Positions 1,815-14,505 of a stretch of 64,000 nucleotides of DNA are shown here, piece by piece. A program made the translations under genes and the position numbers. How positions within the stretch are numbered: position 1 is the first letter of the stretch; each line of letters opens with the position of its first letter. The notes beneath the pieces were generated by a model that ran no database searches, was not told the DNA's origin, and saw only the letters and a program-made list of their open reading frames with translations. Source of the DNA: Gordonia polyisoprenivorans NBRC 16320 = JCM 10675 (GTDB lineage: Bacteria; Actinomycetota; Actinomycetes; Mycobacteriales; Mycobacteriaceae); NCBI RefSeq assembly GCF_000241325.1, contig NZ_BAEI01000087.1, positions 1-64,000 of the forward strand, in the 5' to 3' direction.

Positions 1815-3767
<1,953 letters not shown>

Positions 3768-4223
3768 CTGAGCTGGCCTTTCACTGGTCGGCAACAACAT
3801 CGCGCGTGGCAGCCGCACGTGAGCCGGCTGCCACGAGATCCTCATTGTGAGGGTAGTCACGTTGGATGCCCGTTGCAGGTGGCGGGGCGACGAAAGGTGC
3901 GCGCTCGTCGTCGAGCGGTCGGTTCGTGGGGGTCGGTGTGGCCTGTCGTCGGCTCTGCGCGTTTTGCCGGAGTGCCTGTTTGCAGTGCGAAGAAAAATGG
4001 CCGTTCGCCGAGACGGCCCGATGACTCGTGGGTATGGTTACCTCCCGGTCAGGTTGTTGACAGCTTCCGGCCACGATCCCGTCAGGATCGGGTACGTCCA
4101 CGTCCACGCGCGGTCCACGATGCTGCGCGTGCAATGCAGAAGTCCGGCCGGAGGTGTAGTACAGCGCCTTCCGGCGTCGAATATTGCCGGTTACCACCGG
4201 CGTGCCTCGGAGGGCGATAGCGA
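3768..4223. other. Divergent regulatory region, acsA/dppA
   Basis: 456 bp without a credible gene between the divergent acsA and dppA starts. Besides the CRP-like site there is a TTGACA hexamer at about 4055 on the plus strand without a convincing -10 partner. A short GATCC/GGATC hairpin lies near 4075-4090. ORFs crossing the region have no ribosome binding site and look incidental. Confidence 0.6.
3846..3861. promoter_or_regulatory. Candidate cAMP-CRP binding site upstream of acsA
   Basis: The sequence TGTGA-N6-TCACG matches the CRP consensus TGTGA-N6-TCACA at nine of ten defined positions and is centred about 86 bp upstream of the acsA start. CRP control of acs is known in enteric bacteria and reported in mycobacteria. 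A CRP role here is inference from the motif. Confidence 0.6.
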
Positions 4224-9669: not shown

Positions 9670-10425
9670 ATGACCTCCGACCCGCTCGCACCGCTCGCCG
9701 ACCTGCCCGGGGTGGCCGCCGCGGCCGACGCCGCGCGCGACGCCCTGGGCGCGGTACACCGGCATCCGGCGAACCTGCGTGGCTGGGACAAGACGGCCAC
9801 CGAGGCGTCCTGGCGAGCCGGACGGTCGTCGGCGGCCATCGACGGCGGCAGCGTCGAGCTGCGTCGCGACGGCGACTTCGACGATCCGCTCCTCGCCGGT
9901 GCCATGCGCGTGGCCCAGGCCCTCGACGGCGACTCGCTGGAAAGCCTCACCTCGGTATTCCGGCGTGCTCCCGCACAGGCCTTCGCTCGCCTGCACATGC
10001 TCGCCGCCGCCGATCTCATCGACGATCCCGACGAGCTCGGCCGCCCGCGCGCCGATGCCGACGTCGCGACCCGCCTGGATCTGCTGAGCCAGCTGATCAC
10101 CGGCGGCACCAGGGTGGGTGCGCCGGTCCTCGCCGCCGTCGTCCACGGGGAACTGCTGAGCCTGAACGCCTTTCGATCCGCCAACGGGATCGTCGCCCGT
10201 GCTGCGTCTCGGCTGGTGTGCACGTCGTCGGGTCTCGATCCGCACAATCTCGGCGTCCCCGAGGTGACATGGCTGCGGCGGGTCGCCGACTATCGCGTCC
10301 TGGCGCAGGCCTTCGGCACCGGCCGCGCCGAAGCGCTGGGGGAGTGGATCGTCTTCTGTTGCCAGGCGCTCACCGCCGGTGCGGCAGAAGCGAAGTCGAT
10401 CGCCGACGCCGCACGGGCCGGCTGA
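9670..10425 (+). CDS. Rv3662c-like protein with degenerate Fic-type motif
   Basis: Conserved 251-residue, largely alpha-helical, soluble protein in the position of M. tuberculosis Rv3662c. Residues F168-R177 read FRSANGIVAR, which follows the spacing of the Fic active-site loop HPFx(D/E)GNGRxxR: the Phe, the Asn-Gly pair and the last Arg are kept, but the catalytic His is replaced (NAF) and the first Gly is Ala. H159 lies nine residues before. I infer a Fic-like fold without normal AMP-transferase chemistry; this has not been checked. Translation is probably leaderless: TATGGT lies 6 nt before the ATG. It is annotated variously as an oxidoreductase or conserved hypothetical in relatives. Confidence 0.85.
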   Translation: MTSDPLAPLADLPGVAAAADAARDALGAVHRHPANLRGWDKTATEASWRAGRSSAAIDGGSVELRRDGDFDDPLLAGAMRVAQALDGDSLESLTSVFRRAPAQAFARLHMLAAADLIDDPDELGRPRADADVATRLDLLSQLITGGTRVGAPVLAAVVHGELLSLNAFRSANGIVARAASRLVCTSSGLDPHNLGVPEVTWLRRVADYRVLAQAFGTGRAEALGEWIVFCCQALTAGAAEAKSIADAARAG

Positions 10426-10474
10426 CCGGGCAGACAAACACCGGGCCCACACGACACTGGGCCCACACAACACT

Positions 10475-10514
10475 GCGGGCGGCGATCCGGTTCGAAAACC
10501 GGGTCGCCGCCCGC
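10475..10514 (-). terminator. Terminator hairpin ending the Ms1-like RNA locus
   Basis: An 18-bp inverted repeat (10475-10492 with 10497-10514, one G-U pair) closes a 4-nt loop. Read on the minus strand it is followed by a U-rich stretch AGTGTTGTGTGG. It can also serve the convergent upstream gene on the plus strand. Confidence 0.8.
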
Positions 10515-10839
10515 ATAGCACGAACGAAAGCTACCAAGCGTGCTTGGTGGGTTGTGGTTACCGCCTCGGCGATTGACCACGGACATCTGTCCGATACCGT
10601 TCCGGCGCTGCCAATCTCGTCCCATCACGACGCCATCAATGATGTCGTCGGCGCTGTCCGAGGGTCGGGGCGCTGCCGTCGAGGGTAGCCGTTCACATGG
10701 CCGCGATGTCGCAGGCGCACAACACTTGTGCCTTATGCGGCGCGCTCCGCGTGGGTACTTGCCGCTCGTGCTGGGAAGTGCTCGGAATGGGGGCCCGCTC
10801 CTTCTCTTCCGGGGCGAACTTTGCCTTCCGAGATTCCGT
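10475..10839 (-). ncRNA. Candidate Ms1/MTS2823-like 6S-type small RNA
   Basis: This 524-bp gap between the convergent Rv3662c-like and Rv3661-like (HAD) genes has the gene context of the abundant mycobacterial RNA Ms1 (MTS2823), which binds core RNA polymerase. On the minus strand, the same strand as the HAD gene, a promoter-like TTGATG-N17-TACAAA lies at 10846-10874 and a strong terminator at 10475-10514, giving an RNA of about 365 nt. Local hairpins include GGCACAA/TTGTGC near 10720, GACG.CATC/GATG.CGTC near 10640, CGGAC/GTCCG near 10585 and ACCAAGC/GCTTGGT near 10540. The region is not coding in any convincing frame. Assignment rests on synteny and structure, since I cannot align it to Ms1; the ends are approximate. 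Confidence 0.55.
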
Positions 10840-10845
10840 ATGACC

Positions 10846-10874
10846 TTTGTACACCGTGATCGCAATCACATCAA
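10846..10874 (-). promoter_or_regulatory. Promoter of the Ms1-like RNA with overlapping CRP-like site
   Basis: On the minus strand -35 TTGATG (10869-10874) and -10 TACAAA (10846-10851) are 17 bp apart. Inside the spacer, 10855-10870 reads CGTGA-N6-TCACA, nine of ten positions of the CRP consensus. If CRP binds here it would cover the promoter core, which suggests repression or fine tuning; this is inference. Confidence 0.45.
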
Positions 10875-10949
10875 GACTCAAGCGTGTCAACGTTCGGTGG
10901 CGTTCACATCACCGACGACTGGTGCACTGGTGCAACGGTTTACGGCGCT

Positions 10950-11786
10950 TCAGAGGTGCAGGCCGACGCTCGCCGTGGCGGTGCGTCGAGGCCTGGTGAG
11001 ACGGATTCCGACGCCACATCCCACCGCGGCGCCGATCCCCAGGGCCACCGCCGCGGCCAGCGCCGGCGCGGTGGCGAACGAGGGGTCCGGCTCGCGGTCG
11101 AAGTCGAGGATCGGCCAGCCGTTGTCCTCGGCGTGCCGGCGTAAGTGCTTGTCGGGGTTCACCACCGTGGGCCGCCCGACGACCTCGAGCATCGGCAGAT
11201 CGGTCACCGAATCCGAGTACGCATAACAGAGGTCGAGATCGTAACCGTGCTCCTGCGCGATCTGCAGGATGGCCGCGGCCTTCTGCTCGCCGTAGCAGTA
11301 GAAATCGAGGTCGCCGGTGTAGTGGCCGTCGGTGATGTGCATCCGGCTCGCACGCACGTGATCGACGCCCAACATCACGCCGATCGGCTCGACCATCTCC
11401 TGCCCCGACGCCGAGACCAACGCGACGGCGTGTCCCTTCTGCCGGTGTGCGTCGATGAGGTCGACCGCACCGCTGTAGACGAGCGGCCGGACGACATCGT
11501 CGAGGGTTTCCGCGACGATCCGGTTAACCTCCGAGACATCCCATCCCTGACACATCGTGGTGATGTGCCGGCGCAGTCGCTCGACGTGGTCGGCGTCGGC
11601 GGCCGAGCGGGCGAAGCTCAACTGTGTCACGGCCGAACGAAGCAACGTTCGGGTGTCGAGCAGGCCCTCGGTGAAGAACTGCCGGCTGAAGGCGAGAACC
11701 GAGGATTTCGCGATGACGGTCTTGTCGAGGTCGAAGAATGCGGCGACCGGCGGCGTCTCCTGGACACCCGGGCGATCATCGCTCAT
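10950..11786 (-). CDS. HAD-IB family phosphatase (Rv3661/SerB-like)
   Basis: HAD-superfamily hydrolase of subfamily IB, 278 aa from the ATG at 11786 (an in-frame ATG at 11795 is possible; neither has a clear ribosome binding site). The catalytic DxDxT motif is FFDLDKTVIA near the N-terminus. Motif II is the SASG stretch, and motif III lies in the YAYSDSVTDLPML region. The extreme C-terminus has one hydrophobic segment (APALAAAVALGIGAAVGCGV), so it may be membrane-anchored. Substrate is unknown; relatives are annotated as phosphoserine phosphatase-like. It lies between two RNA loci, as does Rv3661, and is divergent from the 6C RNA and ssd. Confidence 0.9.
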   Translation of the reverse strand: MSDDRPGVQETPPVAAFFDLDKTVIAKSSVLAFSRQFFTEGLLDTRTLLRSAVTQLSFARSAADADHVERLRRHITTMCQGWDVSEVNRIVAETLDDVVRPLVYSGAVDLIDAHRQKGHAVALVSASGQEMVEPIGVMLGVDHVRASRMHITDGHYTGDLDFYCYGEQKAAAILQIAQEHGYDLDLCYAYSDSVTDLPMLEVVGRPTVVNPDKHLRRHAEDNGWPILDFDREPDPSFATAPALAAAVALGIGAAVGCGVGIRLTRPRRTATASVGLHL

Positions 11787-11984: not shown

Positions 11985-12085
11985 GGGTACCCGGTCTTCG
12001 GACCGGTGCCCTTCAGCCCGACCCCCCGGGGCTGAAGCGCGACGACCCCGGCCTCCTCCCCCCCTGGCCGGGGTTGTCCTCTATC
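11985..12085 (+). ncRNA. 6C small RNA (B11-type)
   Basis: Three adjacent hairpins follow a strong promoter. The first has a CCGGTC/GACCGG stem with a TTCG loop (about 11991-12006). The second pairs CTTCAGCCC (12011-12019) with GGGCTGAAG (12029-12037) around a loop containing six C. The third pairs CCCCGGCC (12046-12053) with GGCCGGGG (12066-12073) around a loop with seven consecutive C (12058-12064). Two hairpins with six or more C in the loops define the actinobacterial 6C RNA. In M. tuberculosis the 6C RNA B11 lies between Rv3660c and Rv3661, exactly the context here (HAD gene and ssd). In M. tuberculosis B11 acts on target mRNAs through its C-rich loops. The ends are approximate. Confidence 0.9.
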
Positions 12086-12226: not shown

Positions 12227-13339
12227 ATGACGCCGGAATCGGCCACGATGGCGCTCATGTCCGAAGCCCTCCTCGCCCTCGTCGACGACGATCTGCGCGA
12301 CGACGTCGCCCGGTGTGCCGCGGCCGCAGGCTATCGGCTGGTTCTCGGCGATCCCGCGACCTGCCGCGCCGAGTGGCTGCGGTCTCGTGCGGTCGTCGTC
12401 GACCCACCCGCGGTCGCCGCCTTGGTCTCCACCTCGGTGCCGCGGCGAGCCGGGGTGCTGCTGGTCGCCGACACCGCGCCCCCGGCCGACGTCTGGCGTT
12501 CGGCGATGGACCTCGGCGCCGGTGACGCCGCCCTGTTGCCGGCCGACGAGGGCCATCTGGTGCGCACGCTGACCGAGCTGCGTACGCCACGACGGGCCAC
12601 CGGCGGCGGCGTCGCGCTGATGAGTGCACACGGCGGGGCCGGGGCGTCGGTGCTGGCCGCTGCGGTGGCAACGGCCGCCGGCGACGCCGGTGAGCAGGTG
12701 CTGCTGCTCGACGCCGACGACCTCGGTGGCGGTCTCGACCTCATCCTCGGCATCGAGGACCGGCCGGGGTTGCGATGGCCGGATCTGACGCTGGAGGGCG
12801 GAGCGGTCAACGGACATGCGCTGCACCGCGCCCTGCCACGGGTCGACGACCGGATCGCGGTGCTCACCGGCCGTCGCGACGATTCCCGCCCGGTTCACGC
12901 CGACGCGGTGCTCGCCACCATCGACGCCGGCCGCTCGCACGGTGATCTGGTGGTCGTCGACCTGCCCCGCGCCGACACCGCCGTCGTCCGCGGCGTCGTC
13001 GAGTCGGTGGATCTCGTCGTCCTGGTGACCTCACCGACCGTCGTCGGCTGTGCCGCCGCCCGCCAGATCGCCGACCGGTTGCTCACCGACGCCGCCGATC
13101 TCGCGCTCGTCGTGCGCGGTCCCTCGCCGGGCGGGCTGCGTGCCCCGCAGATCGCCGAGGCCGCCGACCTGCGATTGCTGGCCGCCTACCGGCCGGACCC
13201 GCGACTGCCGGCGCGGCTGGAGAGTGGACGACCCGGGATCGGTGCGCGCAGTCCCCTGGGGCGGGCGGCACGAGCGGTGTACGGGGCCCTCGGTGTCGGT
13301 GTCGGTGTCGGGGCCGTCGGGACGGGGCGGGCCGGATGA
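12227..13339 (+). CDS. ssd: Septum-site-determining protein Ssd / TadZ-like (Rv3660c-type)
   Basis: MinD/ParA-superfamily protein of about 370 aa. An N-terminal response-regulator-like region (residues about 12-120) precedes a P-loop-like NTPase domain starting LMSAHGGAGASVLAAAVATA. The deviant Walker A (GGAGAS, lacking the usual GKT) is typical of Ssd and TadZ proteins. It is the first gene of the pilus operon and its 3' end overlaps tadA by ATGA. M. tuberculosis Ssd has been linked to septum inhibition and dormancy responses; in tad loci of other bacteria the equivalent TadZ localises the pilus machine at a pole. The start is uncertain: ATGs at 12227, 12248 and 12257 all lack a Shine-Dalgarno site. 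Confidence 0.87.
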   Translation: MTPESATMALMSEALLALVDDDLRDDVARCAAAAGYRLVLGDPATCRAEWLRSRAVVVDPPAVAALVSTSVPRRAGVLLVADTAPPADVWRSAMDLGAGDAALLPADEGHLVRTLTELRTPRRATGGGVALMSAHGGAGASVLAAAVATAAGDAGEQVLLLDADDLGGGLDLILGIEDRPGLRWPDLTLEGGAVNGHALHRALPRVDDRIAVLTGRRDDSRPVHADAVLATIDAGRSHGDLVVVDLPRADTAVVRGVVESVDLVVLVTSPTVVGCAAARQIADRLLTDAADLALVVRGPSPGGLRAPQIAEAADLRLLAAYRPDPRLPARLESGRPGIGARSPLGRAARAVYGALGVGVGVGAVGTGRAG

Positions 13340-14505
13340 GCGCGCACACCGACGAGGCGCTGCTGGATCGGGTGCGTTCGCGGTTGGCGTCGGAGGCGGT
13401 GGAGCCGACGGCGGCGGTGATCGCCGACGCGATACGCGCCGAGGCGGGTGGGGTGCTCGGCGACACCGATCTCCTCGCCGCGCTGCGGTACCTGCAGACC
13501 GAGTTGACCGGCGCCGGCCGGCTCGAAGAACTCCTGGCCGAGCCGGGGATCGCCGACATCCTCGTCGTCGGCCCGCACCGGGTATGGGTGGATCGGGGTG
13601 CCGGACTGGAACTCTCGGGGATCACCTTCGACGACGACGCGGCGGTCCGCAGGCTGGCCGGACGGCTGGCGTTGGGCGCAGGGCGCAGGCTCGACGACGC
13701 CCAGCCCTGGGTCGACGGGCAGTTGTCGAATGTCGGACGCCGGGGATACACGGTCCGCCTGCACGCGGTGATCCCCCCGTTGGCCGCCGACGGCACATGT
13801 TTGTCGCTGCGCGTACTACGCAGTGCCGGAATGGGTTTCGACGCGATGGTGGCCTCCGGTGCGATTCCGGCCGAGGCGGCCGAAGTCGTGGGTGAGGTGC
13901 TGCGTGCCCGGTTGTCGTTTCTGATCATCGGCGGCACCGGGTCGGGCAAGACAACGCTTCTCGGTGCGTTGATCGGACAGATGGGCGCCACCGAACGGGT
14001 CCTGTGCGTCGAGGACGCGCTCGAACTGACGCCGACCCACCCGCACGTGGTGCGACTGGTGGCGCGAACGGCGAATGTCGAAGGGGCGGGCGAGGTTGCG
14101 GTACGGGTCCTGGTGCGCCAGGCGCTGCGGATGCGGCCCGACCGGATCATTCTCGGCGAGGTCCGGGGTGCGGAGGTGATCGATCTGCTGACCGCCCTGA
14201 ACACCGGTCACGACGGCAGCGGCGGCACCCTGCACGCCAACTCGACCGCCGAGGTGCCCGCGCGGATGGAGGCGCTCGCCGCCTTGGGTGGGATGGGCCG
14301 CGACGCCCTGCACAGCCAGCTCGCCGCAGCCGTCCACATCGTCCTCGGCGTCGCCCGCAACGTCGACGGGACGCGTGGTCTGTCCGAGATCGGTGTGCTG
14401 CGTCGCGGTGCCGATGGCCTGGTCACCGTTGTGCCGATCTGGTTGCGCAGCGTCGGATTCACTTCGCACCGAGCGCTTTTCGACGAGATGGTCGCGATCC
14501 GATGA
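13336..14505 (+). CDS. tadA: TadA/CpaF family secretion ATPase
   Basis: Hexameric type II/IV secretion ATPase, 389 aa, that powers Flp pilus assembly on the cytoplasmic face of the membrane. An N-terminal helical domain (about 1-110) precedes the RecA-like domain. Walker A IIGGTGSGKTT is near residue 200. The Asp-box region follows, Walker B is RPDRIILGEVRG (about 270-281), and the His-box TGHDGSGGTLHAN is at about 292-304. It overlaps ssd upstream and tadB downstream, each by ATGA. Counterpart of Rv3659c. Confidence 0.96.
   Translation: MSAHTDEALLDRVRSRLASEAVEPTAAVIADAIRAEAGGVLGDTDLLAALRYLQTELTGAGRLEELLAEPGIADILVVGPHRVWVDRGAGLELSGITFDDDAAVRRLAGRLALGAGRRLDDAQPWVDGQLSNVGRRGYTVRLHAVIPPLAADGTCLSLRVLRSAGMGFDAMVASGAIPAEAAEVVGEVLRARLSFLIIGGTGSGKTTLLGALIGQMGATERVLCVEDALELTPTHPHVVRLVARTANVEGAGEVAVRVLVRQALRMRPDRIILGEVRGAEVIDLLTALNTGHDGSGGTLHANSTAEVPARMEALAALGGMGRDALHSQLAAAVHIVLGVARNVDGTRGLSEIGVLRRGADGLVTVVPIWLRSVGFTSHRALFDEMVAIR

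What the first reader, a model, noticed from the sequence alone, without database searches (positions are those of the whole stretch)
10475..10839. Ms1/MTS2823-type 6S-like RNA, assigned by synteny
The gap between the Rv3662c-like and Rv3661-like genes is the position occupied by Ms1 in mycobacteria. It has a promoter-like element, a terminator about 365 nt away, several hairpins and no coding sequence. If real, it extends Ms1 beyond mycobacteria and would mark a conserved RNA pair (Ms1 and 6C) around the HAD gene.
Basis: partly seen in the sequence, partly recalled or inferred. Interest (0 to 1): 0.75.

Follow-up and report, generated by a model that had tools for sequence, protein, structure and literature searches.

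The report
Ms1 RNA with CRP-like promoter box
The gap holds the gene for Ms1, an already known small RNA that in related bacteria binds RNA polymerase in stationary phase, and its promoter carries a conserved box resembling the binding site of a cAMP-responsive regulator that may be its missing switch.

Summary
Rfam's Ms1 model (RF02566) matches the minus strand end to end at 10839-10467 with 119.1 bits, E 5.9e-31. That is below Rfam's 162-bit cut-off, so a default scan misses it. A fold derived from 25 sequences of the genus is 99.7% paired, and 9 of its 55 pairs show compensatory changes. Ms1 in this genus, most likely Gordonia, is in print: G. bronchialis in 2011 (PMC3207917), Gordonia in a 2022 survey (PMC9130861). 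The 6C-HAD-Ms1 arrangement is real: 19 of 33 named loci scanned carry both RNAs. Not named in any paper my searches found is a CRP/GlxR-type box, TGTGA-N6-TCACG, between -35 and -10, centred at -23.5. It is present in 32 of 32 loci examined in the genus, with 21 different N6 cores. It is degenerate in all 9 Mycobacterium loci named to species that I recall to be slow growers. The genome encodes a close CRP/GlxR relative. I propose that CRP holds Ms1 down during growth; this is testable and unproven.

The parts
10467..10839 (-). Ms1 (MTS2823/scr3559-type) small RNA gene, about 365-373 nt, 5' end A at 10839
   Evidence: RF02566 full-length match, 119.1 bits, E 5.9e-31; the only match in the whole genome; compensatory pairs
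10869..10874 (-). -35 element TTGATG
   Evidence: TTG invariant in 32 of 32 loci of the genus; alignment
10855..10870 (-). CRP/GlxR-type operator TGTGATTGCGATCACG, centred at -23.5 between -35 and -10
   Evidence: exact pattern match; GTGA-N6-TCAC in 32 of 32 loci of the genus; N6 columns 0.74-1.14 bits
10846..10851 (-). -10 element TACAAA
   Evidence: alignment; TACAAA, TAGAAA or close variants in most loci shown
10475..10514 (-). 3' terminator-like hairpin GCGGGCGGC...GCCGCCCGC, with almost no U-tract
   Evidence: corresponds to model positions 257-296; helix 10 has 100% of cells paired
10573..10708 (-). variable central insert, approximate limits, between the conserved GCCUGCGA and UCGCCGAGG blocks
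   Evidence: alignment A1; 110 residues where the Rfam consensus has 42
10953..11786 (-). HAD-IB family hydrolase (Rv3661-like), upstream of Ms1 in the same direction; start codon not certain
   Evidence: TIGR01490 above cut-off, PF12710
12007..12082 (+). 6C RNA (B11), on the other side of the HAD gene
   Evidence: RF01066, 73.5 bits, E 9.4e-08
9670..10425 (+). Rv3662c-like gene, convergent with Ms1; named by position only
   Evidence: ORF; no NCBIfam or Pfam match
3846..3861 (+). second CRP-type box TGTGAGGGTAGTCACG, at the 5' end of the acs (acetate--CoA ligase) reading frame
   Evidence: acs by TIGR02188 above cut-off; a like box (GTGACTAC..TCACA) recurs 1.1-2.0 kb past the Ms1 start in many relatives (the gene beside it there was not checked)

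Best explanation
This is the Ms1 RNA gene of a Gordonia-type actinobacterium. Its RNA folds into a long hairpin and should accumulate in stationary phase, bind core RNA polymerase that lacks the primary sigma factor, and store or protect that polymerase (inferred from the mycobacterial and Streptomyces homologues). Its sigma-A-type promoter has a CRP/GlxR-type operator wedged between -35 and -10. I propose that cAMP-loaded CRP sits there during growth, keeps sigma-A polymerase off, and releases the promoter when conditions change. Shown here: the RNA's identity, its conserved structure, the box, its conservation and the presence of a CRP gene. Inferred: transcription, polymerase binding, CRP binding and the direction of control. 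The confidence given is for the identity as Ms1; for the box being bound by CRP I would say 0.65, for repression 0.5.
For: RNA: full-length RF02566 hit, E 5.9e-31, and the same place as the genome's only match. In 298 genomes of the order 93 match; 51 of these belong to the window's family (own genome included). The listed misses of that family are 4, all of one genus with 2.3-2.9 Mb genomes (185 further non-matching rows are not shown). It rings in 0 of 14 control genomes. Structure: 99.7% of 1375 cells paired and 9 pairs with changes on both sides (shuffle mean 2.3, 0 of 500 reach it), against 34-38% paired when the partners are slid; the structure was derived from the same alignment. Box: 32 of 32 loci in the genus; the same pattern occurs 0 times in 24,160 positions further upstream in these loci. 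N6 takes 21 forms in 32 sequences between constant half-sites, and 20 columns upstream average 0.53 bits. Genome-wide the motif gives 36 oriented matches (23 distinct sites by my count) against 8 for the reversed control. A 230-aa CRP-family protein matches the chains 3i54 and 3d0s (recalled to be M. tuberculosis CRP) at E about 1e-136 and 4byy, 4cyd (recalled to be GlxR) at about 1e-111. M. smegmatis Crp1/Crp2 recognise TGTGA-N6-TCACA (PMC7739888, passages). In M. tuberculosis, CRP binding close to the start site goes with repression in a subset of genes (PMC4117774, abstract and passages).
Against: No expression or binding data exist here for this genome. The score is below Rfam's gathering cut-off (119 against 162). 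In one search the number of further pair types is only slightly above shuffles (17 against 14.9, 30 of 500 reach it). The box departs from the strict consensus at its last base (G for A). It is missing or degenerate in several Ms1-bearing lineages: Rhodococcus 2 of 9 have it, Prescottella 0 of 1, Mycobacteroides 0 of 1, Pseudonocardiaceae 5 of 15 by my sum of the genus rows; so it is not required for Ms1. Inner bases show no palindromic correlation (25 of 63 pairs against a shuffle mean of 27.3); this fits CRP, which reads the half-sites (recalled), but adds no support. The genome's CRP meets no curated NCBIfam cut-off (best CRP model 107.6 bits against 266). Growth-phase behaviour of cAMP in this organism is unknown, so the sign of control could be wrong.
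Confidence: 0.95

Rival explanations
1. The locus is Ms1, but the conserved TGTGA-N6-TCAC element is bound by another dimeric regulator of the CRP/FNR superfamily, or by an unrelated factor, and not by the CRP/GlxR orthologue.
For: Sequence alone cannot name the protein. Structures of another family member, Cmr, appear among the weaker matches of the genome's CRP. The box ends in G where the published consensus has A.
Against: The PF00325 search of the genome returned one protein, very close to 3i54/3d0s, recalled to be M. tuberculosis CRP; PF00325 is a short model and may miss divergent relatives. The motif is enriched genome-wide and one site lies at acs.
Confidence: 0.2
2. The invariant element is not an operator but core promoter sequence: an unusual spacer that helps a very strong promoter bind or open with factors such as CarD.
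For: Most of the -35 to -10 stretch is conserved and homologues are very strongly expressed. Ms1 was the most affected gene in stationary phase in a CarD/CrsL depletion study in M. smegmatis (PMC12709188, passage; the passage leaves open to me which of the two depletions). Many mycobacteria do without the full palindrome (19 of 60 g23 loci).
Against: Conservation has the form expected of a dimer site: two constant 4-base half-sites around six variable bases. In most lineages that lost it, -35 and -10 stay recognisable (the two 3.3-Mb genomes L170 and L171 are exceptions).
Confidence: 0.15
3. A 6S RNA proper that binds the sigma-A holoenzyme.
For: Long hairpin RNA, and 6S is otherwise largely missing from these bacteria (PMC9130861, abstract).
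Against: No 6S family appears among the 12 matches of a permissive Rfam scan of the region, where Ms1 is the top hit. Length of about 365 nt against 150-210 nt for 97% of known 6S (PMC4191392, passage). Homologues bind core polymerase.
Confidence: 0.02
4. No transcript: just a G+C-rich intergenic gap with a convergent-gene terminator.
For: The 3' hairpin lies where two genes converge; no RNA data.
Against: Full-length covariance-model hit, compensatory changes and a promoter conserved over many genera.
Confidence: 0.01

Closest known systems
Ms1 RNA of Mycobacterium smegmatis (RF02566; PMC4191392)
   Same: Locus next to the HAD hydrolase, direction, full-length model match, 3' GC hairpin, promoter hexamers just upstream
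   Different: About 365 nt against 304; longer central insert (110 residues where the model has 42); little U-tract; score below the Rfam cut-off
MTS2823 of Mycobacterium tuberculosis (PMC3207917)
   Same: Same gene pair on either side; reported there as present in Gordonia bronchialis
   Different: Described as already very abundant in exponential phase, with a further ten-fold rise. In all 9 Mycobacterium loci named to species that I recall to be slow growers the CRP-like box is degenerate. The M. tuberculosis promoter itself was not fetched.
scr3559 (Ms1) of Streptomyces coelicolor (PMC9130861)
   Same: Core-polymerase-binding Ms1 beside a HAD gene
   Different: Too distant for ordinary homology search, according to that paper; not compared here
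6S RNA
   Same: Polymerase-binding hairpin RNA
   Different: 6S binds the primary-sigma holoenzyme and is shorter; no 6S hit here
CRP-dependent mycobacterial sRNA MTS0997 (Mcr11, name recalled)
   Same: An sRNA whose promoter region has a putative CRP site (PMC3207917, passages)
   Different: There the site lies 107 bp upstream of the start and expression falls without CRP; here the box lies inside the promoter, the position expected for repression

Membership tests
Ms1 RNA (RF02566) | Full-length match to the family covariance model with a significant E-value | tested here: met
   model 1-304, 119.1 bits, E 5.9e-31; 1.1e-30 for the whole genome
Ms1 RNA (RF02566) | Score over Rfam's curated gathering threshold (an annotation cut-off, not a biological definition) | tested here: not met
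   119.1 against 162 bits. Of 93 matching genomes in the order only 34 pass, all in genus g23; of the named loci scanned one Antrihabitans (L091, 189.9 bits) passes too. PMC9130861 states that Rfam returns only species closely related to mycobacteria (passage).
Ms1 RNA (RF02566) | Position beside the HAD-IB hydrolase gene | tested here: met
   TIGR01490 at 10953-11786 minus, directly upstream
Ms1 RNA (RF02566) | Conserved long hairpin and closing 3' hairpin | tested here: met
   (structure derived from the same 25 sequences)
Ms1 RNA (RF02566) | Association with core RNA polymerase without sigma-A | not testable with these tools
   needs RIP-seq or pull-down
Ms1 RNA (RF02566) | High abundance in stationary phase | not testable with these tools
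   needs RNA-seq or Northern
6S RNA | Match to a 6S covariance model | tested here: not met
   no 6S family among the 12 matches up to E 10
CRP/GlxR regulon | TGTGA-N6-TCACA-type site at the promoter | tested here: met
   TGTGATTGCGATCACG, 9 of 10 defined bases; GTGA-N6-TCAC in 32 of 32 loci of the genus
CRP/GlxR regulon | CRP orthologue encoded in the genome | tested here: met
   G000:C19, 230 aa, E about 1e-136 to 3i54 and 3d0s; below the curated NCBIfam CRP cut-off
CRP/GlxR regulon | CRP binding and an effect on expression | not testable with these tools
   needs footprinting, ChIP or a crp mutant

The most novel reading that the evidence does not exclude
Ms1, the actinobacterial RNA that captures core RNA polymerase, is directly repressed by cAMP-CRP through an operator inside its sigma-A promoter. 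This is the ancestral wiring of Mycobacteriaceae, lost on the way to slow-growing mycobacteria, where Ms1/MTS2823 is abundant even during growth. A second messenger would thus set how much polymerase is stored.
Probability: 0.4. Interest if true: 0.7.

Novelty: new member of a known kind. Interest (0 to 1): 0.42.

Why it matters
Ms1 rises about 130-fold in stationary M. smegmatis, and the 2014 paper leaves open which factor controls it (PMC4191392, passage). A conserved CRP-type box inside the promoter names a concrete candidate and links the polymerase-storage RNA to cAMP. Its decay in slow-growing mycobacteria would offer a simple reason for the high growth-phase level of MTS2823. Separately, the 162-bit Rfam cut-off hides Ms1 in much of the order: 59 of the 93 matching genomes fall below it, so default annotation misses it.

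Tried and rejected
6S RNA: no hit. Inner palindromic correlation of the box: not above shuffles, so I rest on the half-sites only. CRP site in front of 6C: PMC4117774 reports CRP binding upstream of ncRv13660c in M. tuberculosis (passage; that this is the 6C/B11 RNA is my reading), but the strict pattern has no match near 12007 in this genome, so I do not claim shared control of the RNA pair. The first promoter listing read many loci on the wrong strand and is superseded. The 2019 paper on Ms1 (doi 10.1111/mmi.14159) is not held, so I cannot say whether it notes the box. Searches for print on the box; I found no paper that names it.

Rows dropped or not examined: of 37 same-genus genomes with matches only 30 gave loci; 7 were not examined for the box. 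The '32 of 32' are these 30 plus the two named Gordonia loci L062 and L063. Of 80 named loci, 16 had no hit of my promoter profile and are outside the box counts. One search places the box by the best -35/-10 pair, anywhere in the last 45 bases; the named loci with it are 27 by the first (my sum of its rows, Nocardia 7 of 10) and 28 of 64 by the second. Of 34 loci tried for full-length extraction, 3 gave no terminator match by my pattern; of the 31 extracted, 25 went into the alignment. Of 80 named loci, 33 were scanned for 6C. The 30 genomes and the 13 were picked by me, mainly for few contigs, so the 5S comparison is not a random sample and is not corrected for descent.

Full report
The finding. 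A default Rfam scan of the window lists only 6C and a tRNA. A permissive scan of 10300-11100 gives Ms1 (RF02566) over its full length at 10839-10467, minus strand, 119.1 bits, E 5.9e-31. The curated cut-off is 162 bits, which is why the default scan is silent. In 298 genomes of the order, 93 match and 34 pass the cut-off, all 34 in one genus (g23); 14 control genomes give none. Outside g23 a named Antrihabitans locus also passes (L091). Of the window's own family 51 genomes match; the listed misses are 4, of one genus with 2.3-2.9 Mb genomes, and 185 further non-matching rows are not shown. By size these 4 look like Corynebacterium, for which absence of Ms1 is published (PMC9130861, section 22 and section 23 part 1); the genus name is my inference. 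Within g23, 291 of 297 genomes match, 274 of 275 of the good ones.

The organism. All 37 same-genus genomes searched, its own included, carry the locus; of 24 others, 2 show short weak matches. Named Gordonia records (L062, L063) give Ms1 sequences that align closely with several of these. I take the genus to be Gordonia; this is an inference.

Structure. Twenty-five Ms1 sequences of the genus (23 unnamed and two named Gordonia, of 31 extracted) were aligned. The consensus fold has 55 pairs. 99.7% of cells pair, 9 pairs have changes on both sides (mean 2.3 in shuffles, 0 of 500 reach it), and sliding the partners drops pairing to 34-38%. The number of pair types is only a little above shuffles (17 against 14.9, 30 of 500). 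The fold was derived from these sequences, so the pairing percentage leans in its favour; the compensatory pairs are the better evidence, and sequences related by descent can also exceed such shuffles. Extracted lengths in the genus run from 251 to 459 nt, six bases past the hairpin included, most of the difference in one central insert. The 3' hairpin is paired in every sequence (helix 10), but its tail is mostly not U-rich; three loci that my pattern missed (L022-L024) do show T-rich tails.

What is known. Ms1/MTS2823 was reported from Gordonia bronchialis in 2011 (PMC3207917, passage), and Gordonia is listed among Ms1 carriers in 2022 (PMC9130861, passages and section 22). Ms1 binds core polymerase in M. 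smegmatis, M. tuberculosis and S. coelicolor (PMC11077062, passages). So the RNA is a new member of a known kind at most.

The RNA pair. 6C lies at 12007-12082, on the far side of the HAD gene and divergent from it. Of 33 named loci scanned, 22 have 6C, in each case upstream of HAD on the opposite strand. 19 have both 6C and an Ms1 promoter-profile hit, 3 have 6C only, 2 (both Tsukamurella) have Ms1 only, and 9 have neither. The profile loses sensitivity with distance, so 'no Ms1' is soft. PMC9130861 does not contain the phrase '6C RNA'; the places of the two RNAs in M. tuberculosis are known separately (MTS2823; B11 recalled).

The promoter box. Lining up the start sites shows a -35 of the form CTTGmTG, a -10 like TACAAAGG and, between them, TGTGA-N6-TCAC. 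In the window it reads TGTGATTGCGATCACG at 10855-10870, overlapping the end of the -35 and centred at -23.5. Counting GTGA-N6-TCAC within 45 bases of the start: the window's genus 32 of 32 (30 unnamed plus two named Gordonia); the genus g23 (Mycobacterium in the GTDB sense, inferred) 41 of 60; named loci with a profile hit 28 of 64. By genus the named loci are mixed: Williamsia 2 of 2, Tsukamurella 2 of 2, Nocardia 7 of 10, Rhodococcus 2 of 9, Pseudonocardiaceae 5 of 15 (my sum over genera). Since all 32 match the pattern, its eight half-site columns carry the full 2.0 bits; the six inner columns carry 0.74-1.14 bits with 21 forms in 32 sequences, and 20 columns upstream 0.53 bits on average. 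The same pattern is absent from 24,160 positions further upstream in these loci. The strict 16-base pattern has 36 oriented matches in the genome, 23 distinct sites by my count, against 8 for the reversed control. One of the others lies at the 5' end of the acs reading frame in this window (3846-3861), and a like box recurs past Ms1 in many relatives.

The likely binder. The genome has one PF00325 match, a 230-aa CRP-family protein that matches 3i54 and 3d0s (recalled to be M. tuberculosis CRP) at E about 1e-136 and 4byy and 4cyd (recalled to be GlxR) at about 1e-111. It meets no curated NCBIfam cut-off. M. smegmatis Crp1 and Crp2 read TGTGA-N6-TCACA (PMC7739888, passages). In M. tuberculosis CRP sites near the start go with repression in a subset of genes (PMC4117774, abstract and passages). 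Hence the proposal: CRP blocks sigma-A polymerase at Ms1 during growth.

A correlation. All 9 loci of Mycobacterium named to species that I recall to be slow growers lack the box; of 4 named rapid growers (also recalled) 3 have it, and Mycobacteroides franklinii does not. Using 5S copy number as a rough stand-in in 43 near-complete genomes, the box is present in 1 of 7 with one copy and 30 of 36 with two (Fisher p 0.0009, not corrected for descent, genomes picked by me). M. tuberculosis MTS2823 is described as very abundant already in exponential phase, rising ten-fold further (PMC3207917), whereas Ms1 in M. smegmatis rises about 130-fold (PMC4191392). Loss of a repressor site would fit, but I did not read the M. 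tuberculosis or M. smegmatis promoter here.

Limits. No transcript, polymerase-binding or CRP-binding data were available. The paper most likely to discuss Ms1 promoter control (doi 10.1111/mmi.14159) is not held; 'not found in print' rests in an open-access library only.

Noticed in passing
window 3846-3861: A second CRP-type box at the 5' end of the acs (acetate--CoA ligase) reading frame, 1815-3860 minus; a like box recurs past Ms1 in many relatives.
   Followed up: partly
window 12007-12082: 6C RNA; present upstream of HAD in 22 of 33 named loci scanned, not found in the two Tsukamurella loci although Ms1 is there.
   Followed up: partly
L170, L171 (genomes G394, G429): Two 3.3-Mb single-contig genomes of genus g23 with weak Ms1 scores (84.7 and 69.6 bits) and altered -35 and box; they look like reduced mycobacterial genomes.
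   Followed up: no
L012, L013, L017, L018, L021 against L027, L028, L063: Ms1 length in the genus runs from 251 to 459 nt, most of it in one central insert of unknown role.
   Followed up: partly
L065, L087, L089, L094, L101, L112, L129, L131, L133: Geodermatophilaceae (family of some genera recalled) keep a close HAD homologue but give no Ms1 profile hit in the fetched flanks; of the 6 scanned (L065, L087, L089, L094, L112, L131) none shows 6C.
   Followed up: partly
window 10442-10465, minus strand: A second terminator-like hairpin just past the Ms1 3' hairpin, possibly a back-up.
   Followed up: no
window 12257-14502: A weak ParA-like match (below the Pfam cut-off) followed by a type II/IV secretion ATPase; could be the start of a Tad pilus-type locus beyond 6C.
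   Followed up: no
genome G403 (genus g23): The one good-quality genome of 275 in g23 without a match to the Ms1 model; 300 contigs, so an assembly gap is possible.
   Followed up: no
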